Source of the DNA: Bryoerythrophyllum caledonicum
Taxonomy: Eukaryota > Streptophyta > Bryopsida > Pottiales > Pottiaceae
NCBI GenBank assembly: GCA_963971425.1
Contig: OZ020516.1
Location: forward strand, 33,158,199 to 33,222,198
DNA length: 64,000 nt
Direction: 5' to 3'
The first letter of the stretch is position 1; each line of letters starts with the position of its first letter. This document shows, piece by piece, positions 5,138 to 57,932 of the stretch. Made by a program: the position numbers and the translations under genes. The notes below the pieces were generated by a model. It was given only the letters and a program-made list of their open reading frames with translations. It had not been told where the DNA came from and did not search any database.

Positions 5138-8228
<3,091 letters not shown>

Positions 8229-21200: not shown

Positions 21201-21806
21201 CAACAGGAAAGAACTCAAATGAAAACAACTGCTCAAATAAAACCTCCAGACTCGGTTTCCTCCCCATACCTTACATGTCCATCTCCCAGGACCAATTCTA
21301 CAACAAGCATGTCTCTGACAAAACATAAACCTAATCAATTCAAAGAACTCCAATACGAGCACGATGATAATTCTGCGTCCGCGGAAACTGTCCAAGACGT
21401 GACCTAACCACCACCGAACCGATCAATCACACACTTAACCACCAATTACAATCCAACACCAGCAACTCGGAATACATTGCCCTAAAAAGTCCCCCAGATC
21501 AGACCCAAAATTCGCCGCAAACCCTAACGGGACATCAATTTCACGAAAACCCTAACTGCGCCAATCCGCGGGTCAATCCGCGCGCTCACCGTAGCTGCTC
21601 AGCGTCAGGTCGTCCTTGAGCACGCGGCCCTTGTAGATCAGCCGCTGCTGGTCCGCGGGGATCTCCGAGCGCTCCACCAACAGCGCCTTCAGCGCGCCCA
21701 CAGTGGCGCCCAGGTCCACCTCCACCGTGAACTTGTTCCCGTTGGAGCACCGCACGTGCACCATCGCGGCGCGCGCCCCGCTGCTCTCCTCCGGCTCGCC
21801 CCCCAT
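18253..21806 (-). CDS. DSK2: Ubiquilin/DSK2 copy B (complete)
   Basis: Complete ubiquilin gene on the minus strand. The ATG at 21,806 opens the UBL exon ([30 protein letters not shown]). A large exon (about 20,873-20,105) encodes an Ala/Pro-rich linker with [14 protein letters not shown], then STI1 repeats with [40 protein letters not shown] and [11 protein letters not shown]. Further exons carry [14 protein letters not shown] and [20 protein letters not shown] (about 19,747-19,519), [20 protein letters not shown] (about 19,298-19,182), [19 protein letters not shown] (about 18,975-18,915), a Gly/Met-rich exon (about 18,680-18,570) and the UBA (about 18,400-18,253). All frames are open, so this is the likely functional paralog. 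It matches copy A exon by exon in inverted, tail-to-tail orientation. The family role is delivery of ubiquitylated cargo to the proteasome and autophagy. Confidence 0.93.
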
Positions 21807-22138
21807 CGCCTCCCTCTCTCGCAATCCCCTGCCTCTCGCCCCCTCTACTCTCTCTATCTCTCTCTCTTCCTCCTCCCGATCTCACACCTCCGATGCGCGT
21901 ACGTCTGGTGCGGAATTGCAAGTGTAGTGAGCTTGGAGGGGCGAATTGGAGGCGAGCGATGCGGCGATGATTGATGGCCTGCGAACGCAACGACGACGCT
22001 GATGCCGGGCGAGCAAGTTCCAGGCTTCCGGTGTCTGGGTTTGGTCGGACGTTCGTCGTTTGGATGATTTTCATCCTATGGATGGGTGGCGTGAGAGTAC
22101 GAATTTTACTCTCACGCTTGTACTCAAGTCTAGCAAGA

Positions 22139-27570: not shown

Positions 27571-27748
27571 TAAACTTATAGCATCCATGAGTCTTCATAC
27601 ATAGTATATTGAAGAGAAGTACGAGTGAGTAATTCACTCATGCATTGACTACTAGCCATACTCGTGACAAGCAAAACCAATTTCACATTTTCAAATACGA
27701 GCTACCGCTAAATACAAATACTATCCAGAAGATACTTTATTGCGATTT

Positions 27749-30700
27749 TCATGCTTGCTCGGCAATATTAGCAAGCTCTAGAATGCGCATGACCTCGTTA
27801 AAGCTGTAGCCTGGGGCATGCATGAATAAGTCCTCCTTGTAGTCCATCTTACATAAATAGCGTAGGATGTAGTACATATGCTGGCAATACTTCCATTGCC
27901 CTTTCTTCCCCAACGCCTCCACTGACATCTTCACGAAATCTGGACATGTACACGCCGGGTAGTCTGTGAAGGTTATGCAATACGACTTCTTTTTCTCCGT
28001 GAGAAGAGTGATAACGCATCCAAATCCCGGATACGGCATTGCGGTGACATTCGTAACGTAGCAATTCTTCATCAAAGCTGCGCTCGACCACTTGTTTCGG
28101 TGCTCAACGGAAGGCACATCTGAACTTTGACGAATCTGGTAGCCGTTGCGGAAAGTATTATACGAGTCCGGATTCTCTGGAAGCGAGAAGTTTGATCGCG
28201 GAAGAGGCATGTTCAAAATTACCTGGAATTGTCTACGAGGCGACAAAGCACCACGTTGCTCTAACTGAAAACCTGCTTCTTCTAACGATAAAACTTCTTT
28301 CATCGTTAGGTTTGTGCCAAGCTTCACTGGCCATGTCATTGGGACTGATGGCCAGTCTACTACAAACGGTTTCTTCGAACCCATCACGCATCGGCTAATA
28401 TCATCAGTACAAAACTAGAACTCGATAGTCGTGTTTCGGGGCGACCTGGATTCCTTTTTCCTGCCAATATATGTTGGGGCAAGTGTTCCCTGACTCCCAC
28501 GCCCAACTCTAGCGTCACATCTCTCACCTATGTGAGCTTGCAATGCCTGACACTTTCGGTGGGAGGTCTTCGGAAGTCGACCAATGTGCCACTTTGACGG
28601 ATCAACCTCCGATTCCAATACTGCCGTTGTGTGACAGACCCTGGAACCTTGTTCATTTAGGGCCTCTTCGATCCATGCCCAAGTCACCTTTCTGCCATCT
28701 CGTGGAATCGAATAGTTTACCGTATCGGATCGGTGGGAGTCGTTGCTGGACCCGGGTGGCATGTCAAGTTTCCGTTTGGTAGACCCAAAAATCTCCGCTC
28801 CTTCGAGCCCGTCCGTCTTTGTCAAGAGATCCTCTGCCCCCGGGAAACTCCGCACAGCTTCTGCAATGAGTCTGGGATCACCAGAACGTTGGATAGATCG
28901 TAATCGAAGCGTACCTTTGACTGGACCTTTTTCGAAGGTCCTTCCATTGATCCATGCCCGGTACGAAGTGATTTGCATGAAAGCCCGAATTAGGTCATCT
29001 ACGGTAGCCGCATATAAACATGTCATGGTATTCCTGGACTGTTGAAGCCAACGATTGTGGACTGTCTCCACAAGATTACATGATGGCATGTCAGCTCGCT
29101 CGTCGAGTGTGAGGTCCTAATATCATACAGCAATGGTCAGTACATCGTTCACATATAACTTTTCAACAATTTAAATATTAATAAACATCATTGCCAAAAC
29201 TTACTAGTTGCATTGCTCCACCCCATTGTCTACATCATAAATGCCAAAAAGTCATCCAATCTTCTAGCGCACGACGCCCGCTTTTGGTAGTGGCTCCAGA
29301 TGAAATCCACCATCCACAAATGACGTTGTACTGTGCTTCAGCCTCTTCTTGTGATCTCGCGTTTTTCCAAATCCTGCAAAGTGCAATGTGTTGATCTTGG
29401 AATCCTGGTAGAATGCTCTTTGTGGTGGCTCGTTGAAGGCACTTGGTCCAATGGGATAAACAAGTCCATTCTTTGTTTTCGATCGGGACGTCCTTGTCGC
29501 CATTGCCATACACTCGCCGAACAGCGTGCCAATTCGCTCCGGCACTATTAGCCATGAATCCTTTGAAGTTCGTGTTCTCCACTCCGTAATTCAACATCGT
29601 ATCATTCACGTTCTTCCAAAACAACTGTTGTGCTTGAGCATCCTCCGATTGCATATCACACATAGCTATCGTCATAACTTTACAATACTTACTGTCGTAT
29701 ACATGGCATGCCATGGTAGTCCAGTCTTTAACCCGCTTGACGCGATCAAACATCAATCAACAATCTTGGAGGTCTCCACCAGGTTGCATCCGCCAAACAA
29801 GATCAACACCGCTACCAGGACAATTAAAAAACATTTTAAATACAAATACCTTACCTTTAGATTGGCCCGGGAACTTGTTGTCGTGGATGAAGACAAACTT
29901 GGACGACTCCTTTAGCTCCATGATGTTGTCCATGACACCCTTTCCACCACTATAGAAGCGCTTGCATGTCGACACCAAATTTCGTATGTTAGGGGATGAT
30001 GGAGTCTGGAACTGATCCAAGACAACATCCATAGATGCTCCTTCAAGGTTTGATGATCCCGATCTGGGACGGATCAAGTAATCGGATAGGTAATTCTTAC
30101 TGGCAGCCATAATGGTTGCAGTATTAGTGGCGTTGGGTGTGCGCTCGACTTCCTTCGCAACGCACTCATGTATCACGTCCATTGCGGTTTGGTCAACTCC
30201 ATTCGAGATGGGATGCTGGTGAATACCAAGATGAATGGCAAGTCGGGTGCATTCCGAATCAATACACGTCACATAATAAATACGTGCATCACAGAGAGCT
30301 AGACAAATAGGCGGGGTTTGACAAACCTTACAAGCCAAGGTTGATTTAGGGTGCGGAGTGCCATTGACGGGCCATGGGAAAATGGCGAGACCACTCCACT
30401 CCGTTTGATTAGTGTGACCTTCATTCCTGCACTTGTAGTCACAATGAAGGTTAGGACATTGAAGATGGCCAGTACAAGATGACTTCCGGTATGTCAGGCC
30501 AAAATTATTCATGATATTTGTAGTCATTGTCCTGCACCATGTGTGACCATCGTGTTGCTTGCTCATACCATCCAGTCCTCCTCCAAATTGAGTTGGTATG
30601 CCTTTTGGAAGTGGAGGCAACTCAAACAACACGTCTCCGTTGTAAGACGAAGGCAAATACTTCACACGTGAAACCTCAACGCTGTCAAAATCCACGTGTG

Positions 30701-31433
30701 TCAAGTCAGAACGGGATCCCTTTCTAGAAGAGGTCCTACGAACATATGGAATGATACTGCAGATACTTTTAGATTTTGGATGGACAGGTGGTTTTCTAAA
30801 GGAAAGAGACGGAGACATGTGCGACCTACTTGGGGTATGGATAGACGCATCGGGACATATAGAGTCCTGTGACTTAAAGGTGTACGAAGATTCTCCCAAA
30901 TTGACATCAGAGAGGTCCTCGTCTGTGTCACTTAGAAGCTGCACACTTGGGTTAGACCGTGTGTCCAAACCGGGCACGAGTATTGTATCACCGGAATCGG
31001 TAGGAGGGATCATCACGGCACACGACGCATTAGCGGACGTTTGAGTATCTCTGACACCATATACTTTAAAAGAACCACGACACATATTCCACAGAAAGCC
31101 TAAGTCGTCTCGATCTTTCACTTCATATATTGAATGTTCTAATACTCCTGAGCTATCAAACACCTCTTGTTCAACATGAACAGTTCCAAGTCTGAACCCG
31201 AAGCGACTACTGAGGACTGCCTCCGGGACATTAACACTGCTATTTTCACCAACGGACACGACAAGCGGAACACCACCATTCTGAGATGTGAGTGACGCCA
31301 TAGTCAAGAGCTCTCTATAACATAGGATATGGAATGCGTGCGGTCTATGATGGCAGTTGTATATTGAAGAAATCAACTGCTTGTCTAAACATCTCAGTCG
31401 AGACGTCCAATTACGGAAACTCATCGTGCTCAT
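27749..31433 (-). pseudogene. MULE-type transposase with SWIM zinc finger, broken by three in-frame stops
   Basis: A transposase-like gene in one continuous minus-strand frame with a single clear 88-bp GT-AG intron (29,204-29,117). The N-terminal part has an acidic/Ser-rich region and then paired cysteines ending in CTRLAIHLGIHQHP, a WRKY-GCM1/FLYWCH-like zinc-binding region. The catalytic core follows: FVFIHDNKFPGQSKG, KVMTIAMCDMQSEDAQAQ, FKGFMANSAGANWHAVRRVY and MPSCNLVETVHNRWLQQS. The last contains the likely catalytic Glu, whereas FMANSA has Asn where an Asp would be expected. The C-terminus has the SWIM finger CTCPDF with QWKYCQH (near 27,890-27,950). In-frame stops lie at 29,757-29,759 (TGA), 29,235-29,237 (TGA) and 28,415-28,417 (TAG), while the frame resumes with conserved sequence after each, so this is a recently inactivated copy. 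The start could be 31,433 or 31,301. It is divergent from the ParB-like gene. Confidence 0.8.
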
Positions 31434-32150
31434 AAGTGGCAAAAATATTTAACGCCTTCTGTCAGATGCCCATGCACGCTCCCTGACGGCGCCTCAATCT
31501 AAATGGAAAAGATTTCAAATTAAGGAAAGAAATTAATAGGTTGATCCTACTAAGGCGGAGTATACCATACAGTTGGTATGCTGTGTGTTCACTTGTTTTA
31601 AGTAAATTGACAGCGAATACCCAATGAGAAGAGAGATGAGAGATGACTAATTGAAAGAGAGTAAAAACCTTTGTTTACTGCGGAATAGTGCATTCTTAGT
31701 CTGCCAATACTACTTGCACACAATCTGACACATCTTTATTGAATACGACATAGTTCTGATTCAAATCTAGATGTCATGATCGAAGTCTCCAATTTACAAA
31801 TAGATAAGCGCTAGTTGTATCCGCTAAGCCACCAAGTCTGCTTAAAGTTAATTATTCCCCGTTGTTGTCGTCATTCACTTAAGATGAATGATAAAATCTA
31901 GTAAAGTGCAATGCTTTTGACAACATAAGCAAATAATAGAGATGCTATAGCCACCACTAACATCGTTTTTGAAATTCAAATTATGGCTGACAACAATTGG
32001 AGGTAGTAGATGCGGATTATGGGCCATCCCATTGGCAACTGCTTGAAATAGTAAAATAGAACTAAGTAGGTGTAATTAAGGTTCAACAATGACTTGCCAT
32101 ATCATAGCAGCCCTACCTTGTGATAATGTTCAATGTGACTCAACCACGAC
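31434..32150. promoter_or_regulatory. Interval between the divergent transposase and ParB-like genes
   Basis: About 700 bases without coding signal, placed where divergent promoters of the two transposon-type genes would be. No terminal inverted repeat or other transposon end was found in it. The assignment rests on orientation only. Confidence 0.35.
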
Positions 32151-33613
32151 GACTTGCAGAGGATGACAAGCAAGGGTGGCCGGAAGAGAAGAACAGCACA
32201 CGGCTCAAATCCAAAGCCGAGTCGGTCCCGAATGCAACGACAATAGCACAAGGCCTTGGCTTCAGAGGAGAGTCGTGAGGACCTGTCATCTTAGGGGCCC
32301 GTGCGATTCAAGAATTTGTCAAGTATACTTCAAGCAGAAGAGGCGCCAGACAATACTGTCGAAGTAAGTGCTTCAGTTTCATATGATTAGTTAGTTTTCA
32401 ATAGTGCAATCCTATATTGGTCCACCTTTTATTCGTAATGTGTAGTCGTACAGCTATGTGATGCAGCTGCCTACAGAAAGAGGGGAACAAGAATCAATAC
32501 AAGTTATCATGACGAGTGATTTCACGGGACCTAATGCGTCAGTAAGCTCGATGCATGGGGGTAAGGGTGCAAATGGTGTTGTTGACGACCTTGACTGTCA
32601 AAGCATGGACTCAAGTATGGACCCTAGGAACCGAGTTAATTCATCACGATCCACAAGGAATAGGAATAGGTCCTCGTCAAGGACAACCAATGGTCGACCA
32701 ATGAACGATCAAGGAAGCACGGGGGAAACTCGGCCAATACTGTTGGGTGCGGAGGGAGCCCAAATGACACATGTACAATATTTTCAGAACGATTTACAAT
32801 ATGCATCGTAACTTTGGTTTCATATTTAGCTCAATGAATTTCCAACTATATTGTGCGGTATGGTTCCTAGACTATGAGGTATTTAGAACCAAATATTAAA
32901 AATTTTTGATTGATTGACCGATTCAATATTTGCGAGTTATAAGGCATCTCGATCATCTGTATAAGCTGAGGGGAAAAATCTTTTTGATTTCAACTCGAGC
33001 ATGAGCCGTCGCCCTTGTGTGGCGTCACTTAACATTTACTTTGCATACCATGTAGTTCGTCAACTTTCAAGTGGGTACTGAAGTTGACTTCTGGTGTGGT
33101 AAATTATTTAAGCTATAGTTTATGCCATAGCATCGCATTTATGAGTCGTCCATGGACATTAGGTTAAATGAAAGGCGGAATTGTTGAACCCTGATATGCA
33201 TAAAATGGAATCCCTTTCTCTTGCAGGCAGGAGGTCGTGATAACAGAGAAGGGAGTGGATAGACGCACGACGACGAGGAGCTACAGCCGCAAGCTGGAGA
33301 GGTAAGTTCAAGACTTTTTCAACTCGCTCGTTTCACTTTAAAATTGGGGATGCTAAGTCCTGTGTCTGCCTTCAAAGTTTGATACTTGTATTCTGGAGTG
33401 GGTTCACAGTTCCACCGCAATATACCCAACACCCATTTCGAAATTTCCATTCCTGTAAACCCTGATCCAATGAGCATAGTTCATAAAATTCAGTAAACCC
33501 TAAATGTGTTGAGACTTCATCAGTTTGGCGCTTCTGAGAGTCGAGTTGAAGCTGGGTTCAAGAGCTTTGGAGCAGACGTTATCGAAGCCGACAAGAACCG
33601 ACTCTCTTTCATG
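32150..33613 (+). other. Possible upstream exons of the ParB-like gene
   Basis: Open segments bounded by plausible splice signals lie at about 32,458-32,811 (Ser/Asn/Arg-rich, low complexity), 33,227-33,301 (preceded by TTGCAG, followed by GTAAGT) and 33,524-33,613. The last reads FGASESRVEAGFKSFGADVI and ends ATG|GTGAGT in phase 0 with the exon at 34,763. The first two do not join in a consistent phase, so their membership in the gene is unproven. Confidence 0.4.
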
Positions 33614-33657: not shown

Positions 33658-34435
33658 GTCGTGCTTGAGATTCAGGCAGTCTGTGCTTAATTCATTCAAA
33701 ATTCAGTAGAGCTCGGATGACTTGTAGGTCCATATCACCTTAGCTCGTGTCCTTGGTTTATACTTGCATGAATCAGAGTTTAGTCTAGATAGGCAGATGA
33801 TAAAAAAAACACCAAAGTTGGAGGAAGACTCGGGTCCCTCGGATCCGAGGGACTGTATGTAGTGCTCATTGTGATCTTTTTTATTTTTTATTTTGCTTAT
33901 GCTTCGTCGTACTTTAAGCTACACGTTTTGAGTCGTGCTTGAGATTCAGTCAGTCTGTGCTTAATGGATACTTGTAATCAGTAGAGTTAGGATGAGTTCT
34001 AAGTCCACGTCACTTCAGCTCGTGTCCTAAAGGTGTACACTTGCATGAATCAGAGTTTAGTCTAGATAGGTAGATGATAAGAAAAAATCAAATTTGGAGG
34101 AAGACTCGGGTTCCTCGGATCCGAGGGAACTATATGCAGTGTTGATTGTGATTTTTTTTTGTTTTTCGCATATACTTCGTTGTACTTTAAGCTACATGTT
34201 TTGAGTCGTGCTTGAGATTCAATCAGTCTGTACTTAATGGATACTTGTAATCAGTAGAGCTGGGATGAGTTCTAAGTCCATGTCACTTCAGCTTGTGTCC
34301 TAAAGGTGTACACTTGCATGAATCAGAGTTTAGTCTAGATAGGTAGATGATAAGAAAAAATCAAATTTGGAGGAAGACTCGGGTCCCTCGGATCCGAGGG
34401 ACTACATGCAGTGCTGATTTGTGATCTTTTTAAAA
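33658..34435. repeat. Three tandem ~273-bp repeats, each with an 18-bp palindrome
   Basis: Units start with GTCGTGCTTGAGATTCA at 33,658, 33,932 and 34,205, giving periods of 274 and 273. Each ends with AGGAAGACTCGGG and a palindrome, TCCCTCGGATCCGAGGGA, at 33,835-33,852, 34,111-34,128 (one mismatch) and 34,384-34,401. The array sits between a candidate exon and the exon at 34,763 of the ParB-like gene, so probably within an intron. Copies 2 and 3 are closer to each other than to copy 1. Confidence 0.9.
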
Positions 34436-34762: not shown

Positions 34763-37700
34763 ATGGAGACACTGCATGGAGACAAGGTCACGCCAACTGA
34801 GGACTTGGGGATGCCTACTATGGACACGACTTCGGCTCCAGAGGCTTTGGGATCGCCAAATGCTCATTCGAGTTTAGTCCTGCAAGTTATACCGGTGATG
34901 GGAATAGATCCCGGTTTGGACACAACAGAGCTTTCTTTAAGGAAGTCCATTCGTGGGACTTCCTATGGTGTGCTCTAGAAGTCTCATTATCCGTCTATTG
35001 GGGAGTTGCACATCCCCCTCTCCCGAATGTTGCCAATGACGGAGGTGCGTATTCCAATGAAGCCGGACATAAAGAAGCTGAAGAGCGAGTTTGTCAAAGG
35101 CTGCACACCAGGATCTGCATGTTTCTATGTTGCATTGAAAGACTTTTCCATGGTCGAACGGGAAGTTCCGCCTGAAGAGGGCGAGGGATGGTCAGACCTT
35201 TGGCGGGCGGAGGACCAGAAGTTTGAAGCTTTGATTGCGAGTATGCCAGAGTTACAATGCCTTTCTGATCATTATTTTTTTCTGTGGGATGGCAACCACC
35301 GCCATCTTGCATGGATGAATGTCATATCCACCATTCATAGAAACGATTCAGCCTTCCATATACCGGTTCGGGCAGTTTTATTAGAGCCCACAATGGTGAA
35401 CCGCCATATACTACTAAACGCCATGACGGACTGGAACAAGTGAGTTCTTTTCTTTATTTTTATTTTTGGTTTGATTATTTTACATTTGTTTGTATTTATT
35501 TGCTTATTATCGCAATTCTTTGAAGTTCATGAACATTGTCACTTAGGCAGAAAGACTCCGACCATGTGACACAGCAACTGTCACATGATATGAAGAGAGT
35601 TCAACATTTTGGGTTGTTGGACTTCGATCACCTCAAGGGTCTGATTAGTGACGAGGATCACGATGCTAGTGTGGCGGAGTGGGCTAGAAAGGGTACCAGA
35701 AAGTGGTATCATATGACCTCGATTCATTCTTGAAGTTACTTTATGAGGTACGTTGGATTTTTATTTGGTCCAAGTTTGTGTACTCTATCCTGTTATGTTT
35801 GGCCCAGAACTCATGAATGCTTTTTTATTGTATTTTTTTGGAAAATATACTATTACTCTCTTTAATTATGTCTTTGTGTAGCGGGAGTTTATTGCAGCTC
35901 AAGAAGATTGTATTCGAACTTACCGTGACACACTTGTGACTGGTGTTGGGACTGATAGTGTTGGGAGCTCTACGGAGTTGGTCACTCTATGCTCCGAAGC
36001 GGTGCAAAAGAAGAAGACTCAATGTAGCACCTTACTCACCCGACTTCTTGCCATTGCTGACCCTCGTAATGGTGAAGAGTTTTTCAAAGAGGTATTCGTT
36101 TATTCAATTCATTGTACTCGTTCATTCAATATCTTTTAAATGATTTTATATTTTTTATTGACCACTTCTCTGTTATCCTTTGTAATAAGTTCTTCATCAT
36201 TATGATGTTTATCAGAACAAGCCCAAAATCACAACAGAGAAGTTGCAATTGCTTTGCACTTCCAAGGTTTCTGCAAGGTTCAAAGGTAGATGGATGTATT
36301 GGTGGAATTTGTCGAAAGAGGGCAAGGGTGAATACAATTTTCCAAAAGCACCATGTTCGGAGATCAGTCTTAAATCCTGGCTTGACGTGGCTTCATTTTG
36401 GGCAGGGGTAAGTTCAATTTTCTTAAATCGTTTTATGTTTCATTTTTCCATCAGTTGTAAGTTTTGTTTACTAACATTTTGTTTTCATTGTATAGCTTGA
36501 GGAGGAGGCTGAGAAGTTATTTTCCAAGGTCGTGAAGGATGACAACATCACCATTCGGATGGAGGGTCTCTCTAACCCCATTATGGATATTGGCTCATGG
36601 GTTGAGGCCACCTCTCTCACATTTTGGAAGAAGGCGTTCAAGAACCATTTCAGTTGGACGAAGCCGTTCGTGAAGTCTGATGGATTTCTCAAGCAGCCAG
36701 AGACACCTCGAAGTGTCAAGAGAGTAGTGCTCCGACATTTTTGGCGAGAGCTCGTTGCCAACGGAGCTTTGCAGCCTCGGGAGTTGTCAATCCCGCTAAG
36801 GAAGTGGTGTGATACCACAGTCAGCGCTGAGTGCCTCTTCACAGAGTCTCAATTGCGCCGTTTTACTTGGCATCATTTGGCTCAGTGTCCTTGGTACTTG
36901 GAGCTTTGGCATTCAGCTTCAACTCCAGGTGACGAGGTGAAGCTTCGGGAGTCATGTGATGCCTTGGCAACACATTCTGGAGCGGGTCCAGCTTTGCAAG
37001 CTTCAGCTCCATTCCAGATTGAGCCTGAGCCTGAGCTTTCTGAAAAGGCCAAGGAGAGGGCAAAACAGAAGGCGATTAGAATTGCAGTCAGAGGAGCAAA
37101 GCGAGAAGCGGCCCGTTTGGAGAAAGAGACTGTAAGGAAGGAGAGGAAAGAGACTCAAGTGAAGAACAAGGAATTGGCAGCTCTGGTGGCAAAAGAGGGG
37201 CCCAAGAAATTGTTGTCTGGCGTGGGTCTTGGATCGTTCTCACAGCCGGCACATGTATTGACAACATTTGGCGCTTTTCCATCCGCCAGCAGCCGCCCAT
37301 GAGCATTCGTTGCAAAATCAGTACAGACCATCTATTTGATTCCTGTAGTGGAGCAGACAGAGTCCACTGTAGTTGTTGAGGTAATCAATACCAGCGCCTA
37401 CTCTATCTTTACTGAGTATGATTCAGTTACAGCTTAGGATGACGTTCCGCTAGTTTGGAGAGATATAGCACAGTGGTTGATGGCCCATGGCGGATCCAAG
37501 ACGCGGTACATGAAGGGGGAGTTGACTGAGGATGGTTTGGCGGATATGTTCAAATTTGACGTTCCGGAGGACTTGCCACTTCCAGGCATTCAGGGTGGTA
37601 CTGTGATTCCAACATGGAACACACTACCTACAGTGCCGACCTGCAACGGTTGGAAAGAATCATTGTGGATTCGATTTAACTTCGAGTTGGTAGAGTTGTT

Positions 37701-38824
37701 TCTTCGTGATGGAGGAGCTATCATCGTATTCTATCCAGATTCCAGGTTCATTTCAAATGAACTGGTTTCCTGGGCTCAGTGGTCGGGATTCGACGAAGAA
37801 GCGAAGTAGTTTGCCATCAATGGACTTCCCCTTTTCTCTGATGTTCGCCCCGGCCGCGTACACAAGACTTTTATGGTGAAGTGCTTCGTTCGGAAGAGGG
37901 ATCCTCCAATTCCATTTGTCTTCAATGATAGAGTGGAGCTTTTGGCGGATGGAATTGAGCTTTCTTCAGACAGTCATCTGACTAACTACATCACCCAGGA
38001 GTCACTGACGGTCAGAGCCTCCACCGGGATGCCATGGCGAGGAGCCAGAGAGAAGTCGCAGAATCTATTGGAGGCTCTTATTGATCTTTGCACCAAGGAG
38101 GATGAGATCGTCATGGACCTCACCGCTTCTACAAGTATTTGCATTTCATTTAATCATTTTTTTTTATTATCCAACCATGATTCTAATTTATTAGTGTTTG
38201 CAGTCCACACTTTTTCCAGGTGCATCTATCAAGGCTTGCAAAGCCCTCAAGCGTCATATTCTTGCCTTGGAGGCAGACAAGGACTTGGTAGACGAGGTGC
38301 TTCGACCCATGATTCCACAGACGTTGGAGGTTAATTCTGCGATTGTTGAGCCCATGGAGCAAACTTCTCTCAAGCGCCCTTTGGGGCTTGGTGATGATGA
38401 ACCAGAGATTAAGACTGCGCCTAAGAGAACTTGTAAGTAAATTCTTTTCATTCATTTGTTGTTTTCGTTATCTTATTCTATCATTGGTATTTTGCTAATG
38501 AAAATTAGTTGCAAACGGTTCTCGACGTCGTTGATGGTTTCTCTGTCGACACCTCCCGTTGGAGTGCTGGCTCGCTTGGCACGGAAGGTTGTGAGTCCGG
38601 AGCAGCCGCATATATTTCCTCAGTATGCTGAAGCTGCTACCATTGCATCCGTAGCGCAACCGTCGCCTCCACGACGTCCACCGACTGCTCGATCCGGCTC
38701 CGGAGCGTAGGTTTTTGTGGATGGCAAGGCTGAGGAGGCCAGTATTGATTTTGATAGTGGTTCTGATAGCAGTATGTCGTTTATCCATCATGGTAGTGAC
38801 GATGAGTTCACATCTGAGCAGTAG
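34763..38824 (+). pseudogene. Transposon-type gene with ParB-like and DNA-methyltransferase-like domains, broken
   Basis: Seven exons with GT-AG borders: 34,763-35,439; 35,547-35,747; 35,882-36,091; 36,216-36,407; 36,496-38,134; 38,220-38,436; 38,509-38,824. Phases agree throughout if a 2-bp AT insertion near 35,710 is discounted. In-frame stops lie at 34,976 (TAG), 37,300 (TGA), 37,435 (TAG), 37,807 (TAG) and 38,708 (TAG). Exon 1 has FFLWDGNHRHLAW (DGNHR at 35,288-35,302) followed by FHIPVRAVLLEP, matching the GxxR signature and following strand of ParB/sulfiredoxin-fold domains. The middle (about 37,020-37,210) is Lys/Arg/Glu-rich and probably coiled. The C-terminal part has GGAIIVFYPDSRF, REKSQNLLEALIDLCT and, across a splice, DEIVMDLTAST with ACKALKRHILALEAD, resembling motif I and its flanks in beta-class N6/N4 DNA methyltransferases. 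No clear DPPY-type motif IV is seen. Domain names are by eye and need profile searches. The tail is acidic and ends at 38,822-38,824. Confidence 0.6.
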
Positions 38825-38998
38825 TGATTCGTCTATTTTGTATGCCGTATTGACCTGATATGAGGCTTTGGATTTATGGATATATATCACCCTTGCATGT
38901 CTTATTTGATTATTTGTTTCATCCACATAAATGTTTGTACTCTAGTTAGATATTCTAATAGATATTGAATTATCATTCAAGGATGGAATTAAATCTAC

Positions 38999-39778
38999 AG
39001 TGACTCACAAAAGTTGTTGGCCCCCCTAAAAATGGCTCTCATAAATTGAGAAATTAAAATTATAAAGTGAAATTTGGACATGTTATAATACATAAGGGAA
39101 TCTACCTTCATGATGAAATTCACTTTAAATAGACTATTTTAAGACACATTTTTATTTGAATGAAATTTCTATGGAAATAAAAACTTTTTTGTGAGAAGTC
39201 AAAATGTTTCATTTTTTAAATAGGAAGAATGTGCATCTTGACTTGAGTCACATGTTACAAGTTTCATGAATTTGGGATTTTTATTCATTGAGATCTCATT
39301 GACTGAAATTTAACCCTAAAATTTTGAAAACTTTATTTTTTACTCCATAAATTGCAAAAAAATATAATAAAAACACAAAATAACACCAAATAATTATATG
39401 TATTTTTATTATATTTTTTTGTAATTTATGGAGTAAAAAATAAAGTTTTCAAAATTTTAGGGTTAAATTTCAGTCAATAAGATCTCAATGAATAAAAATC
39501 CCAAATTCATGAAACTTGTAACATGTGACTCAAGTCAAGATGCACATTCTTCCTATTTAAAAAATGAAACATTTTGACTTCTCACAAAAAAGTTTTTATT
39601 TCCATAGAAATTTCATTCAAATAAAAATGTGTCTTTAAATAGTCTATTTATAGTGAAATTCATCATGAAGGTATATTCCCTTATGTATTATAACATGTCC
39701 AAATTTCACTTTATAATTTTAATTTCTCAATTTATGAGAGCCATTTTTAGGGCGGCCAACAACTTTTGTGAGTCACTG
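38999..39778. mobile_element. 780-bp foldback element with Tc1-like ends
   Basis: The element begins CAGTGACTCACAAAAGTTG at 38,999 and ends with the reverse complement at 39,778, flanked by TA on both sides. The arms continue as inverted copies almost to the centre near 39,390 with only a handful of mismatches, so the whole element is one long hairpin without coding capacity. CAGTG...AAAAGT ends plus a TA duplication are typical of Tc1-type elements, not of plant Stowaway MITEs (CTCCCTCC). The high arm identity suggests recent origin. It lies 175 bases beyond the ParB-like gene. Confidence 0.88.
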
Positions 39779-39780
39779 TA

Positions 39781-42640
39781 TAGCTGTAATGTGTCTTTGA
39801 TTTTAGAACTATACAATATCACATCATGAATAGTATACAAAGTTTTGAATATTTTTAGATGGTCCATCACTATCATTCTCTCCATTCAGCACCCTAAACC
39901 TTCTTGCAGAAATTTCCTTTAACCTAAACAAACATTATAATAGTACTACATATTTGACTTAATTAGAATAGTAATACACATCCGAGAGAATTCCTCTACT
40001 GCAAGTCACAGAGTTATTCAAGCAATGTTTATTACTTCTCCTCCATTAATCATATATAAAATCGTTATTATTTGGAATAGAAGTTTGCATTGTACATATA
40101 TGTTACATTATCTCTTATCCGTTTACTTTTGGATGTAATTTTTCCCCAAATTTCTAATAAAAGTGCCACGGCTATAGGTGCCTCTATTCAATAAACTATA
40201 AATTAAAGCGATTGCAAGTCAAGAATTTCTCTTATGTTAATTTTTTTTTGAAGCACAATCCACCTACACTCACCGCAATAGGTGTTCTTTTTAATTTCAC
40301 AACAAAAACAATGGTAAAAATTGTCATGAATTCAGTGCTCGCCGCTCACCGCTCACCGCTCACAAGATAGCATTCCTGGATTTGGTGGCTCCACGTATTA
40401 TTAGGAAATTCATCTACAATAACTATTCACCATAAAATATTTTTGAGTACTTTGAAATTATTCTTAATTTTCAATGAAGGAGTCTTCTGAAGTCATAATT
40501 TACAAGGAGTTTTCCAAAGACAAGTAGTTATTATTTAATATCTTAAGAGGAAAAAACAAAAACAAAAAAACTCATCAACGCACTTAATTATCACATATGC
40601 AGGATCTAGATTTTTCAACATCATTTGAAATTTATATACTAGTCAACTCAACATTTTTTTGGACAATTTGTAATTGCCGTTTGTATAGCTATGAAAGATA
40701 CGTATACATTCAAACTTTCATTTCTTACCTAAAAATGCAAATATAAATTGTTCATGTTGCCCATTTTATAACTATTATTTGAATTGTTAGTATTCTATTA
40801 TTTTCTTTTTTTGTATTGGTATATAGTTTGACCATTTTTATAAGAGTTAGTATTGTTCAATGATAATGATAACATCTTCATGAGCATTGTTCATTCTCTT
40901 CATTAAGCCAATGGCCACGAATGTGGAGATTCTTAGGATCTCTTCACACTTGGTGATAGGAGTGGTGTTGACAAATGATTAGAGTCAAAAGTTGCATCTA
41001 AATTCACATTGCTAACACTACTTTTAAGTCTCTTAACCCCAAAATGAAAAAAAGTCTCAAGGTGGGCTTTTGCAAATCTTTGGCATGTTCCCATGGTTGC
41101 AATTTATATTTGCAATTTTTAAAATTTTGTACAGAGATGCAATGTGAAGACAAGAGGTACCTGGGAGTTTATTTTTATTCTCATTGGACTTATAGAAAAA
41201 AAGTTATGCCACCTTAAAGAAAAATTTGTTGAGTGCGGGCACATTGGGCAACTCCAGAAACTTTTGCTTTGACACTCTAGTAAATTTGAGATTTTCTATA
41301 CTAGCGAGTAATATTAATTCCTTTCATATTGTCAATTTTTTTTTGGTCTTTAGCGAATTAATGCATTTTCTCCCAAGCCAAAGACTTTCACACATTGCCA
41401 CGCATTGTCAGGTGAGGAACCAAAAAAAACTTCTACTTTACCACATAACACTTTGAGATCTTCATATTTTTCACTTTTTATATTTTTTGTTACATGAAGT
41501 GGTTTAAACCTCCTTATTGGCTGTTTGGATAATCATTCTAAAAAACATTTTTTTCCCAAAAAATTAAAATGTGAATTGGCACTTTTTGAACCTCCACTCC
41601 TTGCACAATTTTTTTGAATATGCTACACCCCTTCTCTACCTCTCAGAATTGGTGTATAAAGAGTTAATATCATAATCAACATGATGATATAAAATTTAGA
41701 CCTTGGGTAGTGCAAAACTTTGACACTAAATGAAATCGAACTCTATTGATCTACTCAGCACAGGGATGAAAATGAACCATTTGTTCTACTTCAAACACTG
41801 TCAATCCGTGCGGTCAAAGTTGATGAATTTTTGTGAGTATGTCATCTATAAAGTGTTAAATGAGATCCTACGGTTAAAGATAGAAATATGATTTAAAAAA
41901 TTTCCGTCTTTACTCATTGCACTAGAATCAACAGTTTTGAAGTGTTTTTGGTTTAAAATTGTCAAGGAAAATTAGGGGTTAATTATTTCTTACTTTTATA
42001 AAGCCAAATGAATTCATCAAAAACTATGATAATAATGTAAATAGCCACGTATTCCTCGCAATCCACAATAATTGTGCCCATGGAGCTCCAGCCAAAGAAA
42101 AGTACGCTGTTCGCATCTGTACACCTTGCATGCAAAATGCGGCAAGACCCGTATGTGATGTGACAATAGCAATACATCCCCATCCTTCATGGCAGGCAAA
42201 TGCGTCATGACTCAAGGAATCTCCTTCTAATGAAACCATTACTTGCGTAAAATCAACCAGGAATAGCAAAGGAAGGAGAAGATGCCACAATAGCATGGGT
42301 ACCCGCACTTTTTTTTTTTCCTTCGTTTTTGTGGGATAGCCACAGTGGCTGGAGCTGTAGCACTTCTGGCTTGTCTTCCCGAAACCATTCAAAACCAAAT
42401 TTTTTCCATAAATATCCATTTTGAAGAATTCATCTCCATAAACATAGAGTTGTACATCTTTTTGGCAATAGGATGGAGTCCCGGCTGTTCATTAGTGGCA
42501 ATATGACGATATAGCAACGGCAATTGATGAAGTTTTGGCGACATGAAATCATAAATTTCCCACTTTTTTCGGGAATTTTCTTTCGCAAATTGGCTCCAAA
42601 TTGACAAAAAAATAAGGGCTGATGGGTACTACTCCTGCAA
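39781..42640. other. AT-rich region with dispersed repeats, no recognised gene
   Basis: No coding motif is seen. The stretch about 41,100-41,960 is similar in direct orientation to about 61,080-61,860, sharing CCTCCACTCCTTGCACAATTT at 41,593 and 61,488. The stretch about 42,417-42,610 matches about 61,910-62,110 as reverse complement. These are two copies of an older dispersed repeat, rearranged relative to each other. A short GCTCACCGCTCACC run is at about 40,340. Confidence 0.65.
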
Positions 42641-47601: not shown

Positions 47602-48594
47602 AAAGTGGAGAGTTGAAAGGTGTGTGAACAACATCCCAACATTGTCATCTTAGTATTGCTCTTCCACATTCCGAGGCGACGATGTGGTTTTTCGCCTCCG
47701 CCAATCCTAGCACTACTGCTGCTGCTGATGTTTCCAAGTGGTCTGAGCAGAGTTGGATGATTAGTGTGATCTAGTGGTGTGAAGTAGTAGAGGTTAGCAC
47801 ATGCTGTAATTATTTGATTGTCGCCGAAAAAGCAACCCCATTTGTAAAATGTCAGGGAATGTTTTTTGATTGAGTTGTCCGTTTTTTTTCCTCTCTCTGC
47901 CAGAGTTTCACATGCTGCAGTGTTTGGCATGAAGTTAATTCAGCAGACTCAACTTCATCATAATCTGTGCTTGGCCTTTCCTGTGATGTTGAGCTTCTAT
48001 TTTGGATTTAATACAAATTTCGTGATCTGGAACGTGCTTGGCGTTTTTGGCTCAAGTGCACTGTTCCTTTTGGTTCTTGGACGCTGTTTATGATGATTTT
48101 TTGTCTGCTTTTCAGAGGAGGAATCTTCGTCTTTTTGGACTTTTGTCCGATGATGCATAGAAATTTGTCTGGGCATCGTTTGAAGCAAAGTAATTCTTCT
48201 GAGCGTAGCAGCATTTTGTAGAAAATCATAGCGTGTAGGGCCCACGGGCACTCGTTTGCTTCCCAATGGCCCTTGATATGCACGCATGTGCGCTTGATGC
48301 GGATACGTGATAGTGGAGTCCTTGGTTCTTGAGCCATTAATAATTAAGAAGTCTTAGTGGGATCTTTGTAACCTCGGGCTAAGCGTTGAGCGGCTCGGAG
48401 CCTGATATAAACTTTTCTGCAAGGCCAACGCCATTCGGAGAACCCCACTTGTGAAGCTCTACATGGCGGACTAGGGCGCCTTTTTCAACGCGTTAGTGCA
48501 ATGATACGTAAGACGAGCAAGATTGGTGTGCTCACAGGGATGTAGGGGTAGGTGCGGTAGAAGTGTTGGGTGCGCAAGAACATCTTGAACTAAT
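47602..48594. other. 3' flank of CCT gene up to the MULE insertion
   Basis: The first few hundred bases probably hold the CCT gene's 3' UTR (T-rich, with AATGTT-type tracts). No further gene is seen before the transposon. Confidence 0.5.
48587..48594. repeat. Left target-site duplication of the MULE
   Basis: GAACTAAT directly precedes the left inverted repeat. AACTAAT recurs at 57,926-57,932 immediately after the right repeat, preceded by a G that also belongs to the element end. A 7-8 bp duplication is slightly short of the usual 9 for MULEs. Confidence 0.75.
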
Positions 48595-48908
48595 CCCCGC
48601 TCACTAGGTTCAATCCGTGTTCGGGCTGTCAGGCCCTGTTTTGGTCTTCTTTCCGTCTCCCGCGGCCGTCCCCCAAAAGCATCTTTCCGCCCCCTTGTCC
48701 GCGTCTTTTCCTTCCAGCGCCTCTCGCCCTTTCCGAGATCCCTGCCCGATCCATCCCGATAAGCGCCTGCCCGCCCCTGCTATCGGCGCAGACCCCGAGA
48801 CCCGATAACACCATATCGGCTATCGGCCTAGGAACGGATCCACGCCCACGTGTACCGGTGGGACCCATCCACCCGCCCTCCGCCGCCGATAAGCCAGTAT
48901 CATCCGGG
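48595..48908 (+). repeat. Left terminal inverted repeat of the MULE (314 bp)
   Basis: Starts CCCCGCTCACTAGGTTCAAT and ends at CAGTATCATCCGGG. It matches the reverse complement of 57,612-57,925 with no difference that I could see. It contains six CCGATA/TATCGG hexamers at 48,756, 48,781, 48,802, 48,814, 48,821 and 48,886. Confidence 0.95.
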
Positions 48909-49678
48909 GATGGTCACAATCATCCATCGCAGGAGGGTTGCAATCAGCCGGAATCCAAATCGATTGAATCTGAAAGCAATCATTTTTTGCATAGGGTTTC
49001 GATGGAGCTATCGCGGATTGAATGACAGGGCGGTCTCTTGATTTGGTCTAGGCGATGTGCTTTCATGGTAAAGCGTGAGATGGTTTTGATAGCTATAGTT
49101 CTGTGGTTGGCGGCTGGTAGTCTCGACAGGAGAATTAGAGTCTCATCATTGTCGCCATCAATTTCAAATGTTCCGGCGGCGTTGTTCAAATGGCGAAGGG
49201 TGCTGTTGGCTCGTTTTCTCTCTCATTTGCAAACCCGTTTGTTTGTACTCGCTATTATCGTTTGCGCTGTTCTTTTGCGAGCTCGATCTCAGAGAATTCC
49301 TTGACATCTTCCATCTCCGATGACGCCTTCTGGTAAGCATGCAAACCCTCCCGCTCTCATTCAGTTTGTAAACCTATAGGCTCATATCGAGTTGTGAAGT
49401 GGACGCAGGAAGTTGATAGTTAGGGTTTCTGGAACTCGATATTCTCAGTACTATTTTTTCTGGAATCATACTGAAGTTTATCTTCGATTGGAGTACGAAA
49501 GGAGATAACGATTGGAATTCCAAGTGCCGCGCTGATAGGAGTACCAAGGGAGATACCGTTTGGAATACTAAAAGGCTTTAACTTCTCGGTTTTAGTTTAG
49601 GGTTTAGGGTTTCTCATGTACCACGTTTCATAATGAGTTTCATGACTGATTTGCGCTGTATGCTGTAGGTCTGCAAAA

Positions 49679-52600
49679 ATGCCGAGATGCAACTGCGTCA
49701 GTGAGTTACCGAGAGGGGTGGAGGCTGTTCCCACCCACCCGAAGTACAACGATAGGCTGAAGAGGATAGAGCAAGTTTTCAAGGTGGAGGGGCATTACTG
49801 GCAAGACAGTTGGTCTCCTCTCACGGCCAGGAGAATGATTCTGGCGATGCACGGGCCAGACTCGCAGATTTACAAAACCAGTGAACTGTCTCCGGAGAAG
49901 AAAGCTTTTCACTGTCCGTATTGCAAGGAGGTCGGGCAGAAACATAGGATCAATCTGCACCTGAATCACGCGAAGTGCCCTGGGCGACCTAACAGGAAAA
50001 TGCCTGCTTATCCGAACCTCGACATCAAGAATCAACCTCAATTCATACAGAAGATGGTGGATTCTACAACAGTGGACGAAATCATTGCTGCTTTCCAGCA
50101 TATCGTCCCACTCGATAGGGCTAGCAGGAAGCCGAGAGGCGGCGGGAAGAGAGCGGCCGGGACTGGATCTCGGGACACGCGCGCAAGAAAGCGAGGAGCG
50201 TCGTCCTCTCGGGCATCGAGAGAAGTCCGATTGGAAGCCGATGACGAGGAGTCGTCATCGGATGACGACGATCAGTACGAGGCGGGCGAGGATGGCGATA
50301 GGTCTGAGGACCGCGAAGATGTCGATGCTAGGCCCATGGACATCGTCGCCTACAACGTTCCAGCGACATCGGAAAGTGGGCACTTCGTTTCCGGGAATGT
50401 CGCTTCCAGAGCCCCGATAAGCCAGGCGATTGTTACATCAAGTGCTCGTGGTCGGGACATGCACTCGATAAAGCGAGGTGCATCGTCCTCTCGGGCATCG
50501 AGAGTAGTGCATGCACAGGCCCCGTCTGATACGACCACATCGGATGAGGAGGACCAGGACGGGTCGCGAGAGGATAGCGAATCCTCTGAGGCGCGCGAAG
50601 ATACCGATGCGCGTCCCAATGAAGCGATCCCGGTCAGGCATCCAGCGACGGCGAAGGGTGGGCAATGCAGCTCCGGGAACGTCGAGAAGAGGCCTACGAT
50701 AGGCCAGGATGTTGCAACATCCTCTCGGCGTGCGAGGAGCCCCAAACCGAACTTTACTGCGCGTGCGATGTGTCCCTTTGACAGCATCACTGCCCCGAAT
50801 TTCCATGGAGAAGACGATCCATATTCCGTAGGGAATGCACCGGAAGTGCGCGAACAGTACAAGGTGGTGCGGAGGGACGATGGACCTAGCGCGACTCTCG
50901 CCGATATCTCCGACGAGAGGTTAAGTATCAAACAATACCTCGCAGGGGGCGCTAGGCCGAGGTACAGTAACCCGGACAGAGAAGCCAGGGCGCGGGAATT
51001 GGAGGAAATGCGCATTCGCGAAATAGAGCGCATTCGTCTCGACGTGGACGAAAAGTACGCGGCGTCCATCCAAACCGACATACCTCCAGTGAGGCGAACC
51101 CGAACCCCTTTGTGGATTCTCATAAAGAATGGTTTGCTGTCTGAAGAGGAGCGTCGCAGCATATCGTCGGAGGATCATCTACTTCAGATGATGCAGGACG
51201 TTGTGGCGCAAGGGCAGTGGCGTTTTACGTCTGCTATCGGGCAAGCGTTCTGCACGCAAGCCATCTCCACCGACGAGCTAAATGAGTGCAAGCCTATCGT
51301 GGAGCTGGCGCAGTTTCCGTGGAGCGAGAAGCTGAGAATTCGGTGGGTTGCTACTGTGAGGGAGACGTGGCTATTTCTTCAACGAGAGAAGGAGGCGCAA
51401 GAATGGGAGGTCTCGGGAAGAGCTAGGGCCGCCAGGATCCAACAAGACCGCGAGGCGGAACTGGTCTCCCGAATTGCCTCCTACGACAAGGAGCGGTCTG
51501 TGGAATGGGAGGCCTTCGTGTGGGACTACAATCTCCTGTTCCACTTCTGCGCCGATAACCCCTTCATTCGCGAGCTCTTGCCGCCCATGCCATGGAAACA
51601 CAACTCCGAAGAGGCGAGAGTGGTGTTATCGATCTTGAAGGCAGCAAGTATCGATCCCATGCGTCCTCCCCGAGAAGCGAGGCTCCTGAAGTGCTGGTTT
51701 ATCGCCAACGGTTTCAGTAACCGGTTTGTCCCCCCTCTATTATCGTCATCTATTTTACCAGCTATTTTAGGGATTCAATGCTATCGGATTCTCGTTCCAG
51801 TTCAGAGTTTTTTGTCGTTTTAACAACTACTGGATTGGAGGTATCGCTTATGAGTTATCGGCTGACTGTTGTTTGAATTGCAGTGGAACAAATATGTGCC
51901 ATCCCCACGCGCGAATGACGCCGCTGATGGTTGATAGGAACTCCGATAACGCACATTCGCCTTGGGATGGCGCATTATTTCTGTACGAGAAGCTAGGGAG
52001 GTTTCTCTTCGGGCATGTGGAGTACGCGGATGAAGATCCGGAGGTGGTAGAACTCCATCAGATGCTCGTTAACGAAGCGCGTGAATGCGGCAGAGCTGTA
52101 ATACAGTTCACCCATCACGTAAGAGCGCGGACAGTCATCGACATGGCCTGTAGACACGAGGTGCAGTTTGAGCTGAGGTGGTGTCAAACCGATCTGGCGT
52201 CGTACATGCCATGGGAGCTTCTCAAAGAGCAATGCCTGTTTCGGGAAGACATCGACTTACTATATGTCGGCAGTGGATCGAGTAAGCCGTCCGCCACATC
52301 GTTTACGATCTTCACTTACAATTTTATGCATATCGTGTGTGAGTACTTATGTTTATCCACTGTCACGTGTGTACAGATATGGTAGGTGGTCACCTTATCG
52401 GAGTCCATGACGGGCCCGAGATGCAGGCTTGTCTCACGGCGATAACAAGTTTCTGCCGGAAGCAATGCGCAGCATCGGTGTCACGTATTCGATCCGAAGA
52501 CGTCACGGAGGATTCTTCTTGGAATACTCGAGACATCGAGGGTGCCCAGGCTCTTATCGCCGTCCACGACGGAACTCCGATTGGGCTCGGAGAGCGACAA

Positions 52601-54882: not shown

Positions 54883-55291
54883 GCTCAGAGCTTCTTCTTC
54901 TTGTATTTTATATGTACGATAGGTTAGGCTCAGACATATCGTCCGACGATAGGTGTGTATACATTCATTTTCCGATCAAATACCGGACGAGTCTGTACTG
55001 TATATTCCATAATGTACAAGAATGTGTTGGTAATGAAATGATCGCGAAGATGTCTTTCTATCCTGGCTATCGTTTATCTATGCATTATAATGTGTATTTG
55101 TCCTACCAATCCTGTTTGTATCCTGTCGAGGACTATACCTCCCGCGATAAGAACTATAGGAGCGAGAGCAGTATACCTCTTCCGATAAGATGAACATATG
55201 TAGGAGAGGACGATGGACCGCAATATGGCAACCCGATAACGCGGTGGCGTTATCGGATCTCTAAATTTAGAATATAGACTACTGGCTATGC

Positions 55292-57479: not shown

Positions 57480-57611
57480 TCCCGCTGCCTATCGGTGACA
57501 CTCTACTCTCCCGCGAGCACAACAAATGGCGCCGCAATGAACACGGGCTGGGGAGACGTTGCAAGCCGAGTCCAACATAAATCATCTACATCATATCCGC
57601 TCCTCGGATTG

Positions 57612-57925: not shown

Positions 57926-57932
57926 AACTAAT
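57926..57932. repeat. Right target-site duplication of the MULE
   Basis: AACTAAT, matching 48,588-48,594. The pre-insertion site would read CTTGAACTAATCCCGCAGG. Confidence 0.75.

What the first reader, a model, noticed from the sequence alone, without database searches (positions are those of the whole stretch)
34763..38824. Plant transposon-type gene pairing a ParB-like domain with a DNA-methyltransferase-like domain
One multi-exon gene reads DGNHRHLAW plus IPVRAVLL (ParB/sulfiredoxin-like) near its N-terminus, and DEIVMDLTAST with RHILALEAD (motif I-like of N6/N4 methyltransferases) near its C-terminus. ParB-like plus methyltransferase fusions in that order are familiar in bacterial mobile elements and phages, but I know of no described plant transposon with this combination. 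If confirmed, the element may have modified its own DNA or chromatin, possibly after capture from bacteria or phage. The lack of a clear DPPY motif leaves catalytic activity open.
Basis: partly seen in the sequence, partly recalled or inferred. Interest (0 to 1): 0.8.

Follow-up and report, generated by a model that had tools for sequence, protein, structure and literature searches.

The report
Plant transposon gene with palindrome array
The stretch is a decayed copy of an accessory gene carried by a high-copy plant-type DNA transposon; its protein ends in a disabled-looking bacterial DNA-methyltransferase domain, begins with a motif resembling bacterial ParB, and sits beside a tandem array of conserved palindromes, which suggests that the transposon carries its own DNA-recognition, perhaps anti-silencing, system.

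Summary
The gene is real but decayed: seven exons (34763-38824) with six breaks. It belongs to a 12.5-13.4 kb terminal-inverted-repeat transposon with 9-10 bp target duplications (7 of 11 copies checked; no left end found in four). The own genome gave 150 scored matches to its ParB-like exon; one copy was spliced to an intact 1117-residue frame. There the C-terminal part passes the Pfam N6_N4_Mtase cut-off, but motif IV reads DVPE, not DPPY, and motif I TxSxG, so catalysis is doubtful. The ParB-like part (WDGNHR invariant in 10 of 10) is inconclusive: no curated ParB profile hits it. New: just upstream lies a tandem array whose unit length (64-276 bp) and sequence differ between six subfamilies but which centres on the palindrome TCGGATCCGA (mostly TCGGGTCCGA-type in one). 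The core also lies upstream of a copy in another organism's contig. A matching pattern occurs 2129 times genome-wide, 11 times reversed. ParB-like plus methyltransferase proteins in algal transposons are already in print; this case, with array and degenerate methyltransferase, is a new variant that probably works like the VANC anti-silencing proteins of Arabidopsis (inference).

The parts
27596..31579 (-). Transposase gene region of the same element (broken copy); DDE-type and SWIM-like zinc-finger motifs read by eye
   Evidence: 93% identical over 3989 bp to the transposase half of element S5a; same order in S1b of the window's own subfamily; Pfam found nothing in four window pieces nor in the 1180-aa S5a conceptual protein
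33658..34431 (.). Tandem array, 273-bp unit, 2.8 copies, between the two genes
   Evidence: TRF; direct repeats
33834..33853 (.). Perfect 20-bp palindrome GTCCCTCGGATCCGAGGGAC, copy 1
   Evidence: 3 matches in the window with up to 3 mismatches, mean 0.00 in 100 shuffles
34110..34129 (.). Palindrome copy 2 (two differences from copy 1)
34383..34402 (.). Palindrome copy 3 (perfect)
34763..35439 (+). Exon 1, holds the ParB-like domain (about 34979-35437); WDGNHR at 35285-35302; TAG at 34976
   Evidence: alignment A2
35547..35747 (+). Exon 2; frameshift between 35697 and 35730
35882..36091 (+). Exon 3
36216..36407 (+). Exon 4 (S2a and S5a start this exon further upstream)
36496..38134 (+). Exon 5: middle region, then most of the methyltransferase-like domain (about 37320-38134); motif IV FDVPE at 37555-37569; motif I DLTAST from 38116; breaks TGA 37300, TAG 37435, TAG 37807
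38220..38436 (+). Exon 6: end of motif I and motif II region (SASIKACKALKRHILALEAD)
   Evidence: exon end by homology with S2a and S5a
38509..38824 (+). Exon 7, low-complexity tail; TAG at 38708
40337..40378 (+). Right terminal inverted repeat of the element; matching left end not found in the window

Best explanation
The gene is the accessory gene of a terminal-inverted-repeat DNA transposon family that is abundant, and recently active, in this plant-type genome. Its roughly 1100-residue protein has a ParB-like N-terminal domain, a long middle region, and a C-terminal domain of the beta-class amino-methyltransferase kind that has probably lost catalysis. It most likely works as a sequence-specific DNA-binding protein: it recognises the palindromes repeated in the array between the two divergent genes, assembles there in many copies, and keeps the element's promoters open against host silencing or otherwise controls them, in the manner of the VANC proteins of Arabidopsis VANDAL transposons. 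Shown: element, gene, constraint, methyltransferase relation by sequence profile, array and palindrome conservation. Inferred: that this protein binds the palindromes, and the anti-silencing outcome.
For: Element and copies. Intact frame and purifying selection. Methyltransferase profile. Array or repeated sites upstream of the gene in each of six subfamilies and two sites upstream of a copy from another organism; CGGATCCG is the commonest perfect palindromic octamer upstream in 7 of 9 stretches examined, tied first in 1, second in 1. Outer arms change on both sides together (covariation 0.500 against a shuffled mean of 0.183, 0 of 500 as high; sites chosen by me). S2 and S5, the closest pair by dN among the fetched subfamilies, share the arms GACCCT/AGGGT although BLAST (hits of 200 bp or more, E 1e-20) finds no similarity between their array regions. 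YYTCGGATCCGARR has 2129 places against 11 for the reversed pattern. In C1:1-10.04 Mb 5 of 22 listed exon-motif places have a site within 4 kb upstream, 0 of 22 downstream; 6 of 20,000 circular shifts reach 5. VANC proteins bind short motifs in tandem repeats in noncoding parts of their own MULEs, and motif and protein change together between families (passages of PMC5735166; Introduction of PMC10398659).
Against: No binding data. 17 of 22 listed exon-motif places had no such site within 4 kb upstream, and 11 of 16 site clusters had no listed exon motif beside them. The distant family (L043, 7.5 kb) has no site. The ParB assignment is inconclusive. Many array sites are imperfect, with dyads of 12-14 bp in S3 and S1b. 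A control with another palindrome of equal composition did not complete.
Confidence: 0.5

Rival explanations
1. The protein is an active DNA methyltransferase that methylates adenine or N4-cytosine in its own element, with the palindrome core (GGATCC, containing GATC) as target.
For: Methyltransferase profile match; D and P of motif IV, an acidic residue in motif II and the last G of motif I are kept in intact-frame copies; a distant family in the same genome has DQPF; the core contains GATC and GGATCC.
Against: Motif IV is DVPE, without the aromatic residue, in 7 of the 8 copies printed (S3c has DVAE), in the window copy and in both contigs of the other organism; FxGxG of motif I is TxSxG. 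7 of 10 S6 sites have CGGGTCCG or CGGACCCG, which lack GATC.
Confidence: 0.17
2. The palindromes are binding sites of the transposase, and the ParB-like/methyltransferase-like protein is a transposition subunit or nuclease.
For: A bacterial ParB-methylase has reported nicking activity (passage of PMC5512222); the array lies between the two genes of the element.
Against: The sites are not at the element ends: in S5a they lie at 7150-7868 of an element spanning 174-13127.
Confidence: 0.18
3. The array is a hairpin or recombination-prone satellite without a dedicated protein reader; the palindrome is kept by structure.
For: Arms keep complementarity while their sequence changes; most S4 sites have dyads of 26-36 bp.
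Against: Structure alone does not explain why the central TCGGATCCGA stays the same in sequence (8 of 8 aligned sites) between subfamilies whose synonymous sites are near saturation.
Confidence: 0.1
4. The gene is a passenger captured by the transposon, with no use to the element.
For: MULE-type elements are known to capture genes (recalled).
Against: Found in the six subfamilies read and in another organism's contigs with matching open exons; dN/dS 0.06-0.28 where computable.
Confidence: 0.05

Closest known systems
ParB-like plus N4/N6 methyltransferase accessory proteins of algal transposons (Ectocarpus Sola1-1_Ec32; similar proteins stated for green and red algae)
   Different: The Ectocarpus element is 21.5 kb and classed Sola1; here 12.5-13.4 kb with 9-10 bp target duplications. 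The passages seen mention no palindrome array and no loss of catalytic motifs. No sequence comparison was possible; the green- and red-algal works (Iyer 2011, Petroll 2025) were seen only as reference entries.
VANC proteins of Arabidopsis VANDAL (MULE) transposons
   Same: Accessory gene of a transposon; tandem repeats in noncoding element DNA carrying a short motif that differs between related families (PMC5735166 passages; PMC10398659 abstract and Introduction)
   Different: The VANC21 motif YAGTATTAY is not a palindrome; no VANC-type (DUF1985) family appeared in the Pfam scans; no functional data here.
Bacterial ParB-methyltransferase fusions
   Same: ParB part first, methyltransferase part last; examples fetched here (L139, L143, L157)
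   Different: Those match ParB_N and keep DPPY and FxGxG-type motifs; here ParB_N is silent, both methyltransferase motifs are degenerate, and a middle region of about 420 residues intervenes.
Beta-class adenine methyltransferases (DpnA-type 5hfj/5hek, CcrM 6pbd)
   Same: Profile match E 1e-6 over 55 residues and, for CcrM, 0.037 over most of the domain with the DVPE region aligned to DPPY
   Different: Catalytic aromatic residue of motif IV absent.

Membership tests
N6_N4_Mtase (PF01555), beta class | Profile match above curated cut-off | tested here: met
   Intact-frame copy S2a, C-terminal part alone: 28.5 bits, cut-off 26.7, profile 36-217; the whole S2a protein 25.4 and the window copy 22.4 are below; 8 places of a distant family over cut-off
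N6_N4_Mtase (PF01555), beta class | Catalytic motif IV (D/N/S)PP(Y/F/W) | tested here: not met
   DVPE (DVAE in S3c); DQPF in the distant family
N6_N4_Mtase (PF01555), beta class | SAM-binding motif I FxGxG | tested here: not met
   TASTG (window copy TASTS)
ParB/sulfiredoxin superfamily | Profile match to ParB_N (PF02195) or to a ParB structure by sequence | tested here: not met
   0 matches in own genome, control 11 of 14; none in PDB, Pfam or NCBIfam for A2
ParB/sulfiredoxin superfamily | Profile-profile similarity and GxRR-type motif | tested here: inconclusive
   hhalign with 21 combined ParB sequences: score 23.8, 15 columns, probability 9%, 0 of 60 shuffles as high; with single groups 12.9-17.7, below the shuffles' maxima (18.9-20.3 for the three groups so tested); the first half of the domain shows no signal
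ParB/sulfiredoxin superfamily | ParB/Srx fold | tested here: inconclusive
   Single-sequence AlphaFold2 model pLDDT 38.9, unusable
Mutator-like (MULE) superfamily | About 8-11 bp target duplication with terminal inverted repeats (recalled) | tested here: met
   9-10 bp in the 7 of 11 contexts in which both ends were found
Mutator-like (MULE) superfamily | MULE transposase profile | tested here: not met
   No Pfam family in the 1180-aa conceptual transposase; therefore called MULE-like, not filed as MULE
VANC anti-silencing proteins | Sequence relation to VANC | tested here: not met
   No such family in Pfam scans; the claim is analogy only
VANC anti-silencing proteins | Binding to own tandem repeats and loss of DNA methylation | not testable with these tools
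   needs protein and plants
Algal ParB-methyltransferase transposon proteins | Sequence homology to the Ectocarpus or algal proteins | not testable with these tools
   algal genomes not held; known from passages only

The most novel reading that the evidence does not exclude
A eukaryotic transposon carries its own parS-like system: a protein built from a ParB-like clamp and a catalytically dead bacterial DNA methyltransferase reads a palindromic, centromere-like tandem array inside the element and spreads from it to protect the element's DNA from host silencing; protein and palindrome arms co-evolve between subfamilies, so that each lineage frees only its own copies.
Probability: 0.3. Interest if true: 0.9.

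Novelty: new variant of a known kind. Interest (0 to 1): 0.7.

Why it matters
ParB-like plus methyltransferase proteins in eukaryotic transposons have been noted in algae with a suggested but untested function. This family adds what makes the question testable: an intact-frame, constrained gene in a plant-type genome, evidence that the methyltransferase is degenerate, and a cis-acting palindrome array that is the obvious candidate target. It would be a second case, unrelated by sequence to VANC, of a transposon evolving sequence-specific self-recognition.

Tried and rejected
ParB by Pfam, NCBIfam, PDB sequence search and in the whole own genome: nothing. IMG/VR searches with the window exon and with the family alignments A3 and A2: 7, 38 and 37 pattern stretches, none a relative by tblastn. 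Phage tblastn: N part none; C part 17 records, all 17 annotated as methylase or methyltransferase, E 0.02-0.6. ParB_N in 54 records (49 of the 80 viral contigs found, plus 5 phage records): 0 of 54; this search also missed phage P1, whose ParB is annotated, so it is not very sensitive. Plasmid tblastn with the distant N domain: one match, E 4, to a hydratase gene. First alignment of motif IV with DIAQW (A1) was wrong and was replaced by FDVPE after reading intact-frame copies. The element at 48594-57926 was considered as the carrier and rejected: the gene lies outside it, and S1b and S5a show the right carrier. The left end of the window element was not found. A control with a different palindrome of the same composition (YYTGCGATCGCARR) was asked eight times and never answered, so the genome-wide enrichment rests on the reversed-pattern control only.
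Full report
What is there. The window lies in a 437-Mb genome (G000, contig C3) whose genes have introns. Land plant, perhaps a bryophyte, is my inference; the species was not identified. This copy is broken: TAG in exon 1, a frameshift in exon 2, one TGA and two TAG in exon 5, one TAG in exon 7.

The element. A search of the own genome with the second part of exon 1 gave 150 scored matches (of 1754 candidates), several with identical scores. I read 20-kb contexts of ten copies in five further subfamilies (S2-S6) and 16-kb contexts of two copies of the window's own subfamily (S1). Some pairs agree up to sharp ends (S5a and S5b 99.92% over 12,958 bp). The ends are CA(A/G)CGACGCTA... and ...TAGCA(A/T)TCCTG, with GTGAGCG-type repeats just inside. 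In 7 of the 11 contexts checked both ends were found, each with an exact 9-10 bp target duplication; element length 12,518-13,387 bp. In the other four (S2a, S2b, S3b, S1b) no left end of this pattern was found; S1a was not checked. Layout, read in full in S5a: transposase gene on the minus strand at left, tandem array in the middle, the gene of the finding on the plus strand at right. In the window the transposase half is 27596-31579 (93% to S5a), the array 33658-34431 and the right end 40378; the left end was not found. Pfam did not recognise the transposase, so I call the element MULE-like from its target duplication and do not file it in the superfamily.

The protein. S2a splices to an intact frame, scanned as 1117 residues. 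Its C-terminal part matches N6_N4_Mtase at 28.5 bits (cut-off 26.7, E 1.8e-6), profile position 36 to 217; scanned as a whole protein it scores 25.4, below the cut-off, and the window copy 22.4, below it too. A profile of six sequences (four copies, the window copy and the distant family) finds DpnA-type adenine methyltransferases in the PDB (E 1e-6, 55 residues) and, weakly, CcrM (E 0.037, over most of the domain) and an N4-cytosine methyltransferase (E 0.85-0.94). The CcrM alignment puts the DVPE region on DPPY: D and one P of motif IV are kept, the aromatic residue is not. Motif I reads DLTASTGAS instead of DxFxGxG. Of eight copies printed (S2a, S2b, S3a, S3c, S4a, S4b, S5a, S5b) seven have DVPE and S3c has DVAE; L125 and L126 have DVPE and DITASTG; the window copy has DVPE. 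S3b, S6, S1a and S1b could not be read across the exon junction with the same script. A distant family in the same genome (L039-L043) has DQPF and the same motif I. Catalysis is therefore doubtful in this family.

The N-terminal domain. WDGNHR, and 40 columns in all, are invariant across ten sequences including the distant family. The order of motifs resembles ParB (IPL...D...L...G...YFFVWDGNHRhxAW...PVRAVVLEP) by my reading. Tests: no ParB family in Pfam or NCBIfam for any of ten members (a few unrelated families with E 0.03 or worse), no ParB among PDB hits (one hit, ribosomal eL24, E 0.021), no PF02195 match in the genome while the control rings in 11 of 14 genomes. hhalign of eleven element sequences against 21 ParB sequences of three groups gave score 23.8, probability 9%, over 15 columns at the DGNHR motif; 60 column shuffles reached 18.3 at most. 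Against the groups singly the scores were 17.7, 15.5, 12.9 and (fourth group) 13.9, not above the shuffles' maxima for the three so tested (19.7, 18.9, 20.3). ParB groups among themselves score 62-128. The first half of the domain has no signal above shuffles (2, 16 and 21 of 40 as high); the second half exceeds 40 of 40 shuffles against the combined alignment, 39 of 40 against two single groups.

Constraint. NG86 estimates between copies: ParB-like part 0.06-0.17 in the 6 of 21 pairs where dS was not saturated; middle 0.14-0.26 (6 of 6 pairs, four copies); methyltransferase part 0.09-0.28 (10 of 10 pairs, five copies). S6 and S1b gave no middle or methyltransferase segment. The gene is selected as a protein.

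The array. Tandem Repeats Finder on one or two copies per subfamily finds arrays upstream of the gene with units of 273 (window), 274-276 (S1a), 243-244 (S2), 117-118 (S3), 126 (S4), 139 and 221 (S5) and 64 bp (S6). They hold a palindrome around CGGATCCG; in S6 7 of 10 sites have CGGGTCCG or CGGACCCG instead. Counting every perfect palindromic octamer in about 2 kb upstream of exon 1 (512 bp in L125), CGGATCCG is the commonest in 7 of 9 stretches, tied in S1a and second in S6. Of seven S1 loci with 1.5 kb of flank, six hold at least one site and one (L009) none. Array length differs between near-identical copies (5 sites in S2a, 30 in S2b). One site per group (eight in all), aligned without gaps, has ten invariant central positions and four outer pairs each changed on both sides in 3 of 8 sequences; 72 of 72 cells pair if G-T is allowed, 71 of 72 by Watson-Crick rules; covariation score 0.500 against a shuffled mean of 0.183, 0 of 500 as high, lower at every slide, though two other measures (pairs changed on both sides, further pair types) do not exceed shuffles. 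I chose these sites, mostly for clear dyads and a GATC centre, so the paired percentage and the invariant core are biased upward; many other sites, above all in S3 and S1b, have dyads of 12-14 bp. S2 and S5, the closest pair by dN, share the arms GACCCT/AGGGT although BLAST at the setting used finds similarity only in the gene half.

Another organism. The scan of prokaryotic genomes with the methyltransferase alignment found two loci, both in contigs labelled as a Synechococcales metagenome bin. They hold the same gene interrupted by introns and are most likely eukaryotic contamination of that bin (inference). L125 has an open frame for each of the seven exons and two upstream sites, one with a 30-bp dyad; L126 starts inside exon 2 and shows no site. 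The core is thus not private to one genome.

Genome scale. YYTCGGATCCGARR occurs at 2129 places; the pattern read backwards at 11. The exon motif occurs 638 + 622 times with up to one mismatch, control 14 + 18. The place lists are cut; in the part of C1 covered by both (to 10.04 Mb; exon places listed are those without mismatch) 5 of 22 exon motifs have a site within 4 kb upstream, 0 of 22 downstream; circular shifts average 0.17 and reach 5 in 6 of 20,000. 17 of 22 exon motifs have none upstream, and 11 of 16 site clusters (6 of the 10 with several sites) have no listed exon motif beside them; these may be diverged or internally deleted copies, not tested.

Mechanism. A motif kept in sequence at its core, often kept in symmetry at its arms, amplified in tandem next to a constrained gene for a protein with a DNA-methyltransferase-like domain is best read as that protein's target. 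The closest working precedent is VANC: VANC21 binds YAGTATTAY motifs arrayed in noncoding parts of VANDAL21 and causes loss of DNA methylation, and motif and protein change together between families (passages; Introduction).

What is known. Dinatale et al. [quoted passage not shown] its references Iyer 2011 and Petroll 2025 seen only as entries). So the combination is not new. In nine paper searches, of which I saw listings and opened four papers in part, I saw no report of it in a land plant, of a degenerate methyltransferase in it, or of a palindrome array; the library holds only openly licensed papers.

Noticed in passing
window 48594-57926: A separate element with 315-bp terminal inverted repeats that are 100% identical and a 9-bp target duplication (GAACTAATC, read by eye); it carries a Ulp1-like reading frame and a transposase-like one with a SWIM-like motif (motifs by eye; Pfam matches only below cut-off).
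   Followed up: partly
window 38996-39780: A 785-bp near-perfect hairpin (382-nt arms, 98% complementary) with CAGTG...CACTG ends next to TA, between the gene and the right end of the element: a MITE by appearance.
   Followed up: no
window 11555-14707 and 17799-21837: Two inverted copies of a gene region, 86-91% similar in the matching pieces; ubiquilin-like by eye.
   Followed up: no
L130 and L156 (genomes of the phylum of G050): Proteins matching ParB_N whose C-terminal part looks like a degenerate methyltransferase without DPPY or FxGxG (by eye): a possible bacterial parallel.
   Followed up: no
L125, L126 (contigs CADCWO010000058.1 and CADCWO010000134.1): Contigs of a cyanobacterial metagenome bin that carry this intron-bearing transposon gene, most likely eukaryotic contamination.
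   Followed up: partly
L039-L043: A distant family in the same genome with the same two-part gene, motif IV DQPF, and no palindrome site or tandem array in the 7.5 kb read; another transposon family or a host gene.
   Followed up: partly
L027 (S2b context): The 243-bp array runs for 33 units to the start of the stretch, about 8 kb, against 5 units in S2a, whose gene half is 99% identical.
   Followed up: no
window 32446-32811: A short plus-strand reading frame between transposase and array; S5a has a frame in a comparable place at 5686-6018: perhaps a third small gene or an upstream exon.
   Followed up: no
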